21,948 nucleotides of DNA from a virus. The stretch's first letter is position 1; every line of letters starts with the position of its first letter. The position numbers were made by a program, and so were the translations under genes. Under the pieces are notes generated by a model. The model made no database searches. It worked only from the letters and a program-made list of their open reading frames with translations, and was not told the origin of the DNA. Positions 13,465-17,568 of the stretch are shown one piece after another. The stretch covers positions 1 through 21,948 of the IMG/VR virus record IMGVR_UViG_3300009177_000682; one strand, written 5' to 3'.

Positions 13465-14051
13465 GGCATACCAAGCCGCTGCGCCGCAACTGCGTGGTGA
13501 TCGGGCTCGGCTCGGCCATCGACCCCACCACGCTGGAGGCCCCCGGCACCACGGGCCAGGTGCTCACCGCCGTCACGGGGGGGCCGCCCGCCTTCGCCGC
13601 CCCCGCCGCCGTGAGCCTGACCACGGGCGTGACCGGCGTGCTCCCGCTCGCCAACGGGGGCACGAACCAGACAATCGGCGTGGTCGTGCCGATTCTCCTG
13701 CAAGCGACGGCGGTCGCGCCTGGCACGGTCTTCCTCGGGCTGGGCAACGAGGATGCGACCGAGGCCAACGTGCAATGGCCGAGCGCCTTCACGGGGACGC
13801 TCATTCGCGCCTACGTCGTCACGACGGGCGCCCCAGGCGGCACGGAGACGTTCACCTATCGCCCCCGGATCGGCGGCGCCGTCGTGGGCAACACCCTCAC
13901 GCTGACGGGCGCCGCGACGACCGGCAACATCACCTTCAGCCAGTCGACGGCCATCGCACTCGGCGACCTCTTGTCCTACCGCCTCGTCGTGTCGGCCGCC
14001 GCGGGCACCTTCAGCCACCAACTCATGCTGATGGTGCGGATCGACGGCTGA
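13461..14051 (+). CDS. Fibre-like protein with the GVLPLANGGT motif (196 aa)
   Basis: It starts with GTG at 13461, overlapping the previous stop. After a short basic N-terminus (RHTKPLRRNC), residues 18-75 contain LEAPGTTGQVLTAVTGGPPA and VTGVLPLANGGTNQ. The latter is a well-known phage fibre element that precedes a shaft or head domain. The last 120 residues are beta-rich (VVPILLQATAVAPGTVFLGL, TLIRAYVVTTGAPGG, ETFTYRPRIGGAVVG, LLSYRLVVSAAAGTF), consistent with a small trimeric head. No enzymatic motif is visible. It ends in TGATG with the following internal-protein gene. Confidence 0.65.
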   Translation: MRHTKPLRRNCVVIGLGSAIDPTTLEAPGTTGQVLTAVTGGPPAFAAPAAVSLTTGVTGVLPLANGGTNQTIGVVVPILLQATAVAPGTVFLGLGNEDATEANVQWPSAFTGTLIRAYVVTTGAPGGTETFTYRPRIGGAVVGNTLTLTGAATTGNITFSQSTAIALGDLLSYRLVVSAAAGTFSHQLMLMVRIDG

Positions 14052-15460
14052 TGGCGCCGCGCTACGTCCGGATCGCGCCCCAGGCCCCCACGGGCGCCGA
14101 CGATGACCTCGGCACCGCGCTCCAGAGCCTCGCCCCCGCAGGCGCCCTCGCCAAGGGCGCGGGCAAGCTCAGCGGCAACACGGACCTGGGCAACGCGGGC
14201 ACCGGGCTGGCGGGTCTGCTCTCGCTTACCCGCGGCATCGCCAAGGGCGACCCGGGCCAAGCGGTGGGCGGCGCGGCCAACGTGGGCAGCGGGCTCGCAG
14301 GCCTCGCGGACTACCCGGGCGTGGCCGATACCTTGGGCGCGGTCGGTGGCCCGCTCACCCTGGCCACGGGCCTGGCCTCGGGCGACCCGCTGAGCAGCAC
14401 GCTCGGGGGCCTCCAGACCGCGAGCCTGGCCAGCGGCTACCTGGGTGGCCCCACGCTCGGGTCGCTCGCGACCGAGGGCCTGGCCGCGGCGGGCTTGGAT
14501 AGCGCCACCCTGGCCGCGATGGGCGGGCTGGGCGGGCTCAGCGTCGCCTTGGCGCCTGCCGCGCTCACGCTGCTGCTCGGCTCCGTGGACTTCAAGGGCG
14601 CGGGCCTGGATGACATGCTCTTCGGCGGCTACAAGCCAATCGAGCAGCGCCAGCTCGAGGAGTACAAGCGCTACGCCGCCGACTTCCCCGGCCTCGCGGC
14701 GCGGCGCACGGCGGGCGCCAAGACGTTCGACACGCTGGGAGACATGGACACGCCCGACGAGATCAGCCAAAGCCTCGCCACGGCCGCCAGCGGCGCGCAC
14801 GCGAACGTGGAACCGGCCGCCTGGAACGTGGGCCACACGCCGCATCGGCTCAAATTCGACGCGCCCGACATGTCGTCCTGGAACGCGGCCAGCCCCGAAC
14901 TGGGCGGCCACAACCAGGCCGCATTCCTGGGCCTGATGGACAAGGGCCAGGCGGCCGGGCTGGACACGGGCGGCATGACGGGGGACTGGAACCTCGGCCA
15001 GTGGGTGCCCTTCGACCAGAACGGGCGCATGGAGTACACGCCGCTCGGCCCCAATACCACGGGCTCCGACTACCGCACGCGCCTCGGCCTGAACGAAGTG
15101 GGCGATCCCGCCCAGACGCAGGAGGCGCAAGACCTCGGCAACGCGGTGAGCGGGATGGCGCGGCATCTGGGCGTGGACCTGCGGAGTAAGGGCGAGGGGG
15201 ACTACGAGAACTTCAACCCCGACCAGTTGGCGGGCTACGGTTTCACGCCGGGGAATTATGGGCTGGCCAGTTTGAACTACTTGCGATCGTTCGATCCAAA
15301 TGTGTCCCAAAACCCCGAGTGGGCGAGCTACGCGTCGGCGCTCGACCCGAACAACGCGCTGGCCGACCTGGACCCGCTCACGCTGACGCCACGGAAGCGG
15401 GCGAGCCTGGCAACGCCCTACTCCGAGTTCAACCTGGGGAGCGGGGGAGGGACGGCATGA
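14051..15460 (+). CDS. Probable internal virion (ejection) protein with Gly/Ala/Leu N-terminal half
   Basis: The start overlaps the previous stop (TGATG). The protein has 469 residues. Residues 20-180 are almost only Gly, Ala, Leu, Ser and Thr, ending in a strongly hydrophobic stretch near residues 150-178 (GGLSVALAPAALTLLLGSV), which could insert into a membrane. Residues 185-470 are polar and helical, with Asp/Asn/Tyr-rich loops (EQRQLEEYKRYAADFPG, HTPHRLKFDAPDMSSW). Podovirus ejection proteins often combine such membrane-active segments with long polar regions and lie after the tail genes. A degenerate copy of the shared motif (ALQSLAP, residues 23-29) and GLAGLLSL (near 52-59) are present. 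The role is an inference from composition and order. Confidence 0.55.
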   Translation: MAPRYVRIAPQAPTGADDDLGTALQSLAPAGALAKGAGKLSGNTDLGNAGTGLAGLLSLTRGIAKGDPGQAVGGAANVGSGLAGLADYPGVADTLGAVGGPLTLATGLASGDPLSSTLGGLQTASLASGYLGGPTLGSLATEGLAAAGLDSATLAAMGGLGGLSVALAPAALTLLLGSVDFKGAGLDDMLFGGYKPIEQRQLEEYKRYAADFPGLAARRTAGAKTFDTLGDMDTPDEISQSLATAASGAHANVEPAAWNVGHTPHRLKFDAPDMSSWNAASPELGGHNQAAFLGLMDKGQAAGLDTGGMTGDWNLGQWVPFDQNGRMEYTPLGPNTTGSDYRTRLGLNEVGDPAQTQEAQDLGNAVSGMARHLGVDLRSKGEGDYENFNPDQLAGYGFTPGNYGLASLNYLRSFDPNVSQNPEWASYASALDPNNALADLDPLTLTPRKRASLATPYSEFNLGSGGGTA

Positions 15461-15462
15461 TG

Positions 15463-15636
15463 CTAGTTGTCGCTCCAGCAGTAGCCGCGATTATGGGTCG
15501 CCACGGCCAGGAAGAGACGCACGGCGCTGCGAAGAGCCTCGGTCGCCTCGTCTTCGGTGCGCCCCTGCGAATAGAGCCGGAGCATCGTGGCGTTCGCCAC
15601 GTAGGTCTGCGACTCCGCGTCCCACCGCATAGTCAT
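15463..15636 (-). CDS. HicB-antitoxin-like protein (57 aa), minus strand
   Basis: This is the only gene I can support on the minus strand. Read from 15636 down to 15463 it gives a 57-residue HicB-fold domain: MRWDAESQTYVANAT as the first two strands (compare W-D-x-E-x-x-x-Y-V-A in HicB), LYSQGRTEDEATEAL as the S-Q-G-x-T-x-x-E-A core, and SAVRLFLAVATHNRG as the second helix. Third positions are G/C in about 49 of 57 codons, as in a coding frame. HicB proteins neutralise HicA mRNA interferases. No hicA-like partner is visible, and the usual C-terminal DNA-binding part is absent. No Shine-Dalgarno precedes the ATG; instead, a perfect inverted repeat ends three bases upstream. The frame is open further upstream but lacks a start codon. 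An orphan antitoxin, or a HicB-fold protein of another role, are both possible. Confidence 0.68.
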   Translation of the reverse strand: MTMRWDAESQTYVANATMLRLYSQGRTEDEATEALRSAVRLFLAVATHNRGYCWSDN

Positions 15637-15638
15637 TC

Positions 15639-15686
15639 GCCAGAGGCCGTCCTGGTCCCTGGGGAGAGGCGGGGACGGCCTCTGGC
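15639..15686. promoter_or_regulatory. Perfect 14-bp inverted repeat beside the HicB-like start codon
   Basis: The left arm GCCAGAGGCCGTCC (15639-15652) and right arm GGACGGCCTCTGGC (15673-15686) are exact reverse complements with a 20-base spacer. In the minus-strand transcript the hairpin ends two bases before the AUG of the HicB-like gene, where a ribosome-binding site would lie. It may be an operator, or an RNA structure controlling translation. No T-run follows on either strand, so it is not a standard terminator. Confidence 0.7.
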
Positions 15687-15742: not shown

Positions 15743-15757
15743 ATAGGGTCTACCTAT
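15743..15757. promoter_or_regulatory. Small inverted repeat ATAGG-N5-CCTAT
   Basis: The perfect 5-bp arms ATAGG (15743-15747) and CCTAT (15753-15757) are separated by five bases. They lie in the locally AT-richer stretch where a promoter for the rightward operon would be expected, and abut the parS-like site. It is operator-like in form, but short enough to arise by chance. Confidence 0.35.
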
Positions 15758-15790: not shown

Positions 15791-16267
15791 ATGGCTGAGG
15801 GTCTCCAGGGCTTGCTTGCGCACTTGGCGGGGTCCGCTATTGGCCCGTCCGAGACGCAATCGCTCCTCCAGCAATTGGCCGACCAAGATCCAGAGGCCGC
15901 CGACAAGATGATGGACCGGCTTGGCTACGGCCACCGCCCGGCGCGGCGCACGCTCGGCGAGGGCGCTGGGCTCTACTGGGACGCGCGCCACCCGACCCAA
16001 GGCGGCACCCAGCGAGTGGAGTCATCGGTCGGCGCCCCGAGTGCGGATCACTACCGGCTCGTCGACAGCATGGAAGAGGGGCACGACGTGCTGGGGCGCG
16101 GCGAGAAGCCGCTCCTCATCGGCAACCTGGAAGACATCAACCCCGACGAGATCGACCCCCGCGTGCTGCGGCAACTCCAGGAAGACCAGTGGGCCGCACC
16201 GGGCGGCACGCCGCTCTGGGGCGACATGGGCACCAGCGGGGGCCTCCAGGGCCTCTTGCGGCAATAG
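15791..16267 (+). CDS. Unknown protein with GLQGLL at both ends (158 aa)
   Basis: A good AGGAG (15780-15784) lies six bases before the ATG at 15791, the first gene of the operon that reads away from the control region. The protein starts MAEGLQGLLAHL and ends GGLQGLLRQ, so one copy of the shared motif sits at each terminus. Between them are a helical part (residues 20-45, QSLLQQLADQDPEAADKMMD), a polar middle with RTLGEGAGLYWDARHPTQGG, a short alpha/beta region (DHYRLVDSMEEGHDVLGRG, KPLLIGNLEDINPDEIDP), and a Pro/Gly tail. No enzyme motif is recognised. Two motif copies in one protein could bridge two partners in the virion, which is an inference. Confidence 0.6.
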   Translation: MAEGLQGLLAHLAGSAIGPSETQSLLQQLADQDPEAADKMMDRLGYGHRPARRTLGEGAGLYWDARHPTQGGTQRVESSVGAPSADHYRLVDSMEEGHDVLGRGEKPLLIGNLEDINPDEIDPRVLRQLQEDQWAAPGGTPLWGDMGTSGGLQGLLRQ

Positions 16268-16276
16268 GAGTATGTG

Positions 16277-17101
16277 ATGGCCGACTTCGACTGGGATAGC
16301 CTGCTGGGCGGCTTCAGTAGCGAGATGCCGACCGACTGGCTGTCGGCGGTCGCGGGTGGCGCCGACCTCTCCAATATGGTGCTGGATACCGCCACCGGGC
16401 AACTCGTGGACATCGCGAGCCTGAGCCCGGAAGACCTCACGGACCTGGACGGGGAGGGCCTGACGGGCGGCGGCTCTGGCCAGCTCAACCTCGGCCCGAG
16501 CTCCACGTCGACCAGCGACCATCTGCGCAGCCTCCAGGCCGATCCGAACACGCCTGGCAGCGAGCCCTTCGACTGGAACGCCATGGCCGATCCCAGCGCG
16601 TCCATCGCCAGCGCGGACGACAACGGGTGGGGCAAGGCGCTGGCGCAAGGCCTCAGCAACGCGCTGAGTGGCGCGGGCGGCGGCTTAAAGGGCCTGATGG
16701 GCGATCCCAGCGGGGGCGGCCCGACTCCGGGCGGCGCAGGCGGTCTCGCCGGGGGCCAGCCGAGCCTCATGGGCGACCCTGGCCTCGTGGGCGACCCCGG
16801 GCGCCTGAGCGGCGGCGCCCCCAGCGTGCTCGGCGACCTCATGGGCCCACCCTCGGGCGGCGGGCTGCAATCGCTCCTGCACCCGGGGAGCCAGGATGCC
16901 GTTGGCGCCCAGTACACCGCGACGGCGGGCGTGCCGCGCTCCCCGCTGACCATGCAGTCGGCGATTGACCCGGGCCCCGCGCCGCGGCCGTTTACTCCGC
17001 TCGCGCTGCCGACGGCGGGCGGGCCCCTGCCGATGGCGGGCCAGGCGCCGATGCCGCGGCTTTCGGGGCTGCAGCGCCTACTTTCAGAAAGGCTCGGGTG
17101 A
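16277..17101 (+). CDS. Gly/Pro/Asp-rich protein with three GLQxLL-type motifs (274 aa)
   Basis: AGGAG at 16266-16270 is six bases before the ATG at 16277; an in-frame GTG three bases earlier is less well placed. The N-terminal 75 residues are acidic with aromatic anchors (ADFDWDSLLGGF, PTDWLSAVAGGADL). Residues 130-200 are low-complexity repeats built on GDP and GG (LMGDPSGGG, LMGDPGLVGDPGRLSGGAPS). Three motif copies occur: GGLKGLM (16682-16699), GGLQSLL (16862-16879), and SGLQRLLSERLG at the very C-terminus (17063-17098). It is likely largely disordered, like the gene at 1104, with which it shares this architecture. The stop overlaps the endonuclease start (TGATG). No family is recognised. 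Confidence 0.58.
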   Translation: MADFDWDSLLGGFSSEMPTDWLSAVAGGADLSNMVLDTATGQLVDIASLSPEDLTDLDGEGLTGGGSGQLNLGPSSTSTSDHLRSLQADPNTPGSEPFDWNAMADPSASIASADDNGWGKALAQGLSNALSGAGGGLKGLMGDPSGGGPTPGGAGGLAGGQPSLMGDPGLVGDPGRLSGGAPSVLGDLMGPPSGGGLQSLLHPGSQDAVGAQYTATAGVPRSPLTMQSAIDPGPAPRPFTPLALPTAGGPLPMAGQAPMPRLSGLQRLLSERLG

Positions 17102-17568
17102 TGGCTGAGATCCAGTTGACGCAAGGGAAGGTCGCTTTGGTTGATGACGCGGACGTGCCGCTCGTCATGGGCCACAAGTGGTACGCGGTCAGACATGCGA
17201 CTGGCATCTGGTATGCGCAGTCAGGTCGAGCGCGCTCGAGCAAGCTCATGCATCGCCTGATCCTCCCAGATGCGCCTCGCATCGACCACTGGGACCGCGA
17301 CGGGCTGAACAACCAACGTGGCAACTTGCGCCCATGTACGGCCAGCCAGAATCTGGCGAACTCACGGCATCAAGTCGGCGGCACTAGTCACTATAAAGGA
17401 GTGTGCTGGGTTACGAGAGAGCGCCGCTGGCGAGCCCAACTGAAATCCAACTACCGCACAGTCTGCCTGGGCTACTTCACAGACGAGATCGCCGCGGCCA
17501 GGGCCTACAATGCTGGCGCGCTCGCGACTTGGGGCGAGTTCGCCTGCCCCAACGTGATCGAGGAGTAA
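17101..17568 (+). CDS. HNH-AP2 homing endonuclease, free-standing
   Basis: Free-standing HNH enzymes of this type cut DNA at phage sites that lack the gene and spread by repair of the break. Residues 4-40 are the usual N-terminal part (IQLTQGKVALVDDADV, then HKWYAV). Residues 50-87 hold the HNH core: MHRLIL, D62-H63, the NNQRGNLR block with N71 and N75, and N84 and N87. Residues 97-151 are an AP2-type DNA-binding domain (YKGVCW, RWRA, LGYF, AAARAYN, GEFACPN). Codons such as AAA, GGA, ACT, AGT and TCA make the gene visibly less G/C-biased than its neighbours, a sign of separate origin. It lies between two virion genes, starts by TGATG overlap, and is 155 aa, a normal length. It appears intact. 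Confidence 0.88.
   Translation: MAEIQLTQGKVALVDDADVPLVMGHKWYAVRHATGIWYAQSGRARSSKLMHRLILPDAPRIDHWDRDGLNNQRGNLRPCTASQNLANSRHQVGGTSHYKGVCWVTRERRWRAQLKSNYRTVCLGYFTDEIAAARAYNAGALATWGEFACPNVIEE

What the first reader, a model, noticed from the sequence alone, without database searches (positions are those of the whole stretch)
15463..15636. Orphan HicB-like gene on the opposite strand inside the virion operon
A 57-residue minus-strand frame with a clear HicB-type core (SQGRTEDEA) and strong third-position G/C bias interrupts a region where all other genes are on the plus strand. No HicA toxin is adjacent. Orphan antitoxins in phages can neutralise host toxin-antitoxin defence. Alternatively this may be a moron-like gene with its own expression. 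It is short enough for a routine length cut-off to miss it.
Basis: partly seen in the sequence, partly recalled or inferred. Interest (0 to 1): 0.65.

Follow-up and report, generated by a model that had tools for sequence, protein, structure and literature searches.

The report
Orphan mini-HicB antitoxin gene in phage
A soil phage carries, pointing against the rest of its virion genes, a tiny gene that looks like the antitoxin half of a bacterial HicA/HicB toxin pair without the toxin, most likely to disarm a host toxin; it is a real gene that routine annotation would miss, but lone phage HicB genes have been reported before.

Summary
The 57-codon minus-strand frame at 15463-15636 is very probably a real gene. 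It is the only one of six frames there with the phage's codon usage, it lies in an intergenic gap, and its stop is 2 nt from the upstream gene's stop. Curated HicB models (Pfam PF15919 and PF05534, PHROG 497, NCBIfam) do not detect it. A HicB profile built without it does (24.2 bits; best of 50,000 shuffles 13.5). Its nearest bacterial matches are HicB-like proteins, and several sit directly beside a Pfam-confirmed HicA. With a HicB alignment AlphaFold gives the beta-beta-beta-alpha HicB core; alone it gives two helices. It is shorter than known HicBs: no DNA-binding domain and no fourth strand. No HicA is found in the window or in the one syntenic relative, which lacks the gene and has a 60-nt gap at that junction, so it looks like a moron-type insertion. 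A unique 14-bp perfect inverted repeat ends 2 nt before the start codon. Best reading: a minimal orphan HicB antitoxin that neutralises a host HicA; that function is inferred, not shown. A lone HicB in a lytic phage is already published, so this is a new, very small, divergent member of a known kind.

The parts
15463..15636 (-). 57-aa HicB-like gene (ATG at 15636, TAG at 15465-15463)
   Evidence: Codon usage; HicB profile score against shuffles; relatives beside HicA; fold with HicB alignment
15639..15686 (.). 14-bp perfect inverted repeat (arms 15639-15652 and 15673-15686, 20-nt loop); its inner end on the gene's strand lies 2 nt before the ATG and overlaps the likely ribosome-binding stretch AGGACGG; role unknown
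   Evidence: only perfect repeat of 11 bp or more, loop up to 40 nt, in the window or L008; shuffled windows average 0.33 such repeats of 11 bp or more; minus-strand RNA fold z -2.56
15743..15757 (.). Palindrome ATAGG-N5-CCTAT in front of the next plus gene; also present at the homologous junction of L008 (14911-14925)
14048..15460 (+). Upstream virion-region gene (about 470 aa), 50% identical to L008 13341-14864; ends tail-to-tail with the HicB-like gene. Flank, not part of the unit
15791..16267 (+). 158-aa gene of unknown function; like the HicB-like gene, missing from the homologous junction of L008. Flank

Best explanation
The frame is a moron-like gene for a minimal HicB-type antitoxin without a toxin partner. 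Shown: it has the phage's codon usage, it is homologous by profile to small HicBs that lack a DNA-binding domain and are encoded beside HicA, and it is absent from the same junction in a relative. Inferred: the protein keeps the three strands and helix 1 of the HicB core, the part that in solved HicA-HicB complexes packs against HicA, and during infection it binds a host HicA RNase and prevents mRNA cleavage, so that a HicA-based abortive defence does not stop the phage. It has no DNA-binding domain, so it cannot autoregulate as long HicBs do. The hairpin that overlaps its ribosome-binding stretch may set its translation level instead (inferred).
For: Only coding-like frame of six (+20 bits against -31 or less). 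HicB profile without it: 24.2 bits, E 1.2e-9 for one sequence; best of 50,000 composition shuffles 13.5; still ahead of all shuffles with Pfam-found seeds only (19.5 against 13.2) and with Pfam-found seeds lacking SQG/TQG (14.8 against 11.7). Search of 199 genomes of the L022 genome's phylum: 5 of 6 matches at E 0.01 or better are HicB-like (one of the five, in G005, was already known). Relatives L022, L023, L027, L030 and L075 have a Pfam-confirmed HicA directly next to or overlapping hicB; L081 and L042 have partial HicA matches. AlphaFold with HicB alignment: beta-beta-beta-alpha, pLDDT about 97-98 over residues 1-40; PDB matches 2yzt, 6g1c, 6g1n, 2dsy are HicB or HicB-like, TM 0.57-0.72 by query length, rmsd 1.1-1.7. 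HicB helix 1 packs on HicA independently of the DNA-binding domain (PMC10865869). Lone HicB in lytic phage R16F (PMC10152775).
Against: No curated HicB model detects it. The single-sequence AlphaFold model is two helices, and the HicB-like model depends on an alignment that already assumes homology. Foldseek E-values are weak (best 0.23 in PDB). Strand 4 is missing and strand 1 is short, so it could be a decayed fragment. No relative carries it, so selection on it cannot be measured. No promoter-like site was found. The host and any host hicA are unknown.
Confidence: 0.6

Rival explanations
1. A decaying remnant of a HicB gene picked up by recombination and now without function.
For: Shorter than the 60-90 aa of compact HicBs (PMC10865869); no strand 4, short strand 1; absent from the relative; no promoter-like site.
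Against: Phage-like codon usage and GC3 of 0.86 across the whole frame. No HicB-like sequence continues past the stop (read directly: HHAVPPPLPRLNSE then a stop) or before the ATG. No HicA remnant.
Confidence: 0.17
2. A HicB-fold protein that does not act against HicA but serves another role, such as a small regulator or an inhibitor of another host protein.
For: The partial RNase H fold is reused in other families (DUF1902, DUF7387 and UPF0150 match the same consensus). The tail is unlike that of other HicBs. Host HicB-solo genes of unknown function exist (PMC9694453).
Against: Several of its nearest relatives are direct HicA partners.
Confidence: 0.13
3. The frame is a chance open frame or non-HicB helical mini-protein, and the HicB likeness is a coincidence around SQGRTEDEA.
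For: No curated model match; single-sequence fold helical; when SQGRTEDEA is replaced by alanines the profile score falls to 5.4 bits, so the motif carries most of the score.
Against: Profile scores above all shuffles even with seeds lacking SQG/TQG. Spacing from the YVA strand to SQG equals that in L022. Codon usage.
Confidence: 0.06
4. The interval mainly serves as a structured RNA or regulatory spacer (14-bp hairpin, ATAGG-N5-CCTAT palindrome), and the frame is incidental.
For: Unique inverted repeat and a palindrome shared with L008.
Against: Both elements lie outside the frame; no Rfam match; codon signal confined to the frame.
Confidence: 0.04

Closest known systems
Compact HicB antitoxins without a DNA-binding domain (Classes 1 and 2 of PMC10865869; Pfam PF15919, PF21748 and PF24113-like), e.g. 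L022, L030, L023
   Same: Core strands 1-3 and helix 1 with the SQG-x-TE-x-EA turn; no DNA-binding domain; L022 shares the nonamer SQGRTEDEA
   Different: 57 aa instead of 60-90; no strand 4; no adjacent HicA; in a virion operon on the opposite strand
Orphan HicB of Vibrio phage vB_VpaM_R16F (PMC10152775)
   Same: HicB-family gene in a phage genome without HicA
   Different: Its sequence was not compared here; per the paper it was recognised by ordinary annotation and resembles bacterial HicBs
PHROG 497, toxin-antitoxin system HicB-like (category moron, auxiliary metabolic gene and host takeover), e.g. viral locus L013
   Same: Phage-borne HicB-like protein; L013 is 38% identical over 45 residues
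   Different: The PHROG 497 model does not detect the window gene
HicAB-like pair of mycobacteriophage Adephagia (gp90/gp91; described in PMC11594946)
   Same: Phage-encoded HicB-like antitoxin
   Different: Adephagia has the cognate toxin; here none is found

Membership tests
HicB antitoxin family | Match to a curated HicB profile above its cut-off | tested here: not met
   No HicB model listed for Pfam, NCBIfam or PHROGs; PF15919, PF05534 and PHROG 497 empty in targeted searches of the window
HicB antitoxin family | Sequence homology to bona fide HicBs by a sensitive profile | tested here: met
   24.2 bits against 13.5 for the best of 50,000 shuffles; holds with restricted seed sets
HicB antitoxin family | Closest relatives are partners of HicA | tested here: met
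   HicA (PF07927) adjacent to or overlapping hicB in L022, L023, L027, L030, L075; partial in L081, L042; not seen by the motif search in L025, L026, L028, L078, L079, L080
HicB antitoxin family | Partial RNase H fold, beta-beta-beta-alpha-beta | tested here: inconclusive
   beta-beta-beta-alpha with HicB alignment (PDB HicB matches); two helices without alignment; strand 4 absent in both
HicB antitoxin family | Adjacent hicA gene | tested here: not met
   No HicA in the window or in relative G001. This makes it an orphan and speaks against a TA module, not against an HicB-type protein
HicB antitoxin family | C-terminal DNA-binding domain (long HicBs) | tested here: not met
   57 aa in all; compact Classes 1 and 2 also lack it
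HicB antitoxin family | Binds and neutralises HicA | not testable with these tools
   Needs co-expression or binding assays
Phage moron | Present in one phage, absent at the same junction in a relative, outside the operon's transcription direction | tested here: met
   L008 has a 60-nt gap between the two homologous flanking genes; opposite strand. Only one relative spans the junction
Phage moron | Own promoter and terminator | tested here: inconclusive
   None found by sigma-70 and U-tract scans, which do not cover other promoter types

The most novel reading that the evidence does not exclude
A minimal HicB, reduced to strands 1-3 and helix 1 (below the size of described compact HicBs), that works as a stand-alone phage inhibitor of host HicA and is controlled by a hairpin over its ribosome-binding site rather than by autoregulation.
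Probability: 0.15. Interest if true: 0.5.

Novelty: new member of a known kind. Interest (0 to 1): 0.28.

Why it matters
If the inferred function holds, it would be direct material for the open claim that HicAB systems act in anti-phage defence, which reviews state still lacks experimental proof (PMC11594946): phages would not keep lone HicBs unless HicA harms them. It also shows that curated HicB models miss very short HicBs in GC-rich phages, so lone phage antitoxins are probably undercounted.

Tried and rejected
Direct relatives of the 57-aa protein: none by peptide-pattern scans of viral contigs or genome contigs or by tblastn against PLSDB plasmids; phage tblastn gave only chance-level matches (E about 2). 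The weak Pfam matches SirA (E 0.024) and PHD_like (E 0.046): SirA is taken as chance; the PHD_like stretch matched is one that a generic HicB consensus also matches. A blastn match of 49 nt to Caulobacter phages (E 0.03) lies antisense to the annotated genes there and has no HicB likeness: rejected as chance. L064, brought in as a viral relative by the HicB alignment, is a DUF1902 protein beside a HicA match and scores at noise in the HicB profile (4.0 bits). The hairpin as an intrinsic terminator: no U-tract on either strand (sequence). Structured RNA: no Rfam match. The downstream 158-aa gene as homologue of L008 15727-16209: not significant. PADLOC: no match for the protein. Host assignment: the MCP is only 25% identical to Arthrobacter phages and 44% to a hostless podovirus, so no host is claimed.

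Full report
The observation. The minus-strand frame 15636-15463 exists as described. It lies between a plus-strand gene ending at 15460 and one starting at 15791, with the two stops 2 nt apart, tail to tail. At 69% GC an open frame of 57 codons is not remarkable, so I tested codon usage: a model trained on the plus-strand genes of the window gives this frame +20 bits. The other five frames over the same bases get -31 to -85, and no shuffle of the 171 bases reached +20. Of genuine same-length gene segments, 9% score as low or lower, so the frame is in the lower part of the genuine range. Stop-free wrong frames inside known genes reach +20 in 0 to 6% of cases by frame. The signal ends near the ATG, and no common start codon lies upstream in frame. 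I take it as a real gene.

HicB or not. No curated model detects it: Pfam, PHROGs and NCBIfam scans and targeted searches of the window with PF15919, PF05534 and PHROG 497. I therefore built a profile from HicB-like proteins found by PF15919 in bacterial genomes plus HicB-like proteins from viral contigs, without the window protein. It scores 24.2 bits (E 1.2e-9 for one sequence). The best of 20,000 and of 50,000 composition-preserving shuffles score 10.4 and 13.5, and no other open frame of the window or of ten loci of relatives exceeds 4.5. Two biases exist: the genomes supplying seeds were chosen because they hold a similar HicB, and the viral seeds were found with a consensus that I wrote after seeing the protein. 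Without the viral seeds the score is 19.5 (best shuffle 13.2); with only Pfam-found seeds lacking SQG/TQG it is 14.8 (11.7). Replacing SQGRTEDEA by alanines drops the score to 5.4, so the motif carries most of the score.

Reciprocal evidence. A scan of bacterial genomes with a four-row alignment led by the protein gave 11 loci, all small HicB-like proteins; that alignment included the HicB consensus, so this set is biased. As a wider check, the protein alone was searched in 199 genomes of the phylum of the L022 genome: 6 matches at E 0.01 or better, of which five are HicB-like by the profile, the best 46% identical over 43 residues (L078); one of the five (G005) was already known, and the sixth (L082) is not HicB-like. 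Next to hicB in L022, L023, L027, L030 and L075 there is a HicA above Pfam's cut-off; in L081 and L042 only partial HicA matches, 28.5 and 26.1 bits against a cut-off of 27. In several other loci (L025, L026, L028, L078, L079, L080) the motif search saw no adjacent HicA. So the family to which the protein is closest is a family of genuine HicA partners, the compact type that lacks a DNA-binding domain (PMC10865869).

Fold. AlphaFold2 without an alignment gives two helices (best model pLDDT 82, the other four 72-74). With 33 HicB-like rows it gives strand 2-6, strand 11-16, strand 21-25, helix 28-48, all five models at pLDDT 89-90. The alignment-based model finds 2yzt first in the PDB, then 6g1c (HicB N-terminal domain), with 6g1n and 2dsy further down, at TM 0.57-0.72 by query length and rmsd 1.1-1.7, but with weak E-values (best 0.23) because the protein is short. 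A HicB-like viral structure (A0A8S5P710) matches at TM 0.74. I could not run the control of an unrelated sequence with the same alignment. Relative to known HicBs, strand 1 is short and strand 4 is missing.

Surroundings. The window is a fragment of a virion operon (MCP of PHROG 14242, SU10-type adaptor), related to the 48-kb contig G001/L008 (about 68-85% nucleotide identity in matching stretches) and more distantly to podovirus MW202554 (MCP 44% identical). L008 is the only relative found that spans the junction. There the homologues of the flanking genes (50% and 47% identical) are separated by 60 nt, without the HicB-like frame and without the 158-aa gene. No HicB-like frame exists anywhere in G001 or G002, and no HicA in the window or G001. 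Both junctions keep a palindrome ATAGG-N5-CCTAT before the next gene, so the HicB-like gene seems to have entered between the upstream stop and this element (inference). A 14-bp perfect inverted repeat with a 20-nt loop ends 2 nt before the ATG and covers its likely ribosome-binding stretch. It is the only perfect repeat of 11 bp or more (loop up to 40 nt) in the window or L008. It has no U-tract and is not a standard terminator.

Mechanism. Shown: a coding-like frame, profile homology to HicA-paired HicBs, orphan state, absence from a relative. Inferred: the retained helix 1, which in known complexes packs against the HicA sheet independently of the DNA-binding domain (PMC10865869), blocks a host HicA and protects the infection. 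Acquisition of antitoxins by phages is described as a usual counter to TA systems (PMC11594946), and a lone hicB is reported in lytic phage R16F (PMC10152775). Against: the C-terminal strand is missing, so folding and binding need proof; a decayed fragment remains possible.

Verdict. A new, unusually short and divergent member of a known kind: a lone phage HicB-type gene.

Noticed in passing
window 17098-17568: HNH endonuclease with AP2 domain between virion genes, GC3 0.75 against about 0.9 elsewhere; another gene stands at this place in L008, so it is probably a recent mobile insertion.
   Followed up: partly
window 15743-15757; L008 14911-14925 and 20686-20700: Palindrome ATAGG-N5-CCTAT before a gene start in both phages; expected 0.1 or fewer per sequence even with one mismatch allowed. 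Possibly an operator or promoter element of this phage group.
   Followed up: partly
window 15639-15686: 14-bp perfect inverted repeat with no U-tract just before the HicB-like ATG; unique in window and relative; function unknown.
   Followed up: partly
L022 1468-1883: A protein that matches only Pfam DUF7387 (function unknown) is followed, overlapping, by a HicA (PF07927, 64 bits): DUF7387 looks like a HicB-type antitoxin family.
   Followed up: partly
L064 3926-4423: Viral contig with a DUF1902 protein followed by a HicA match (27.6 bits, cut-off 27): a DUF1902-HicA pair.
   Followed up: partly
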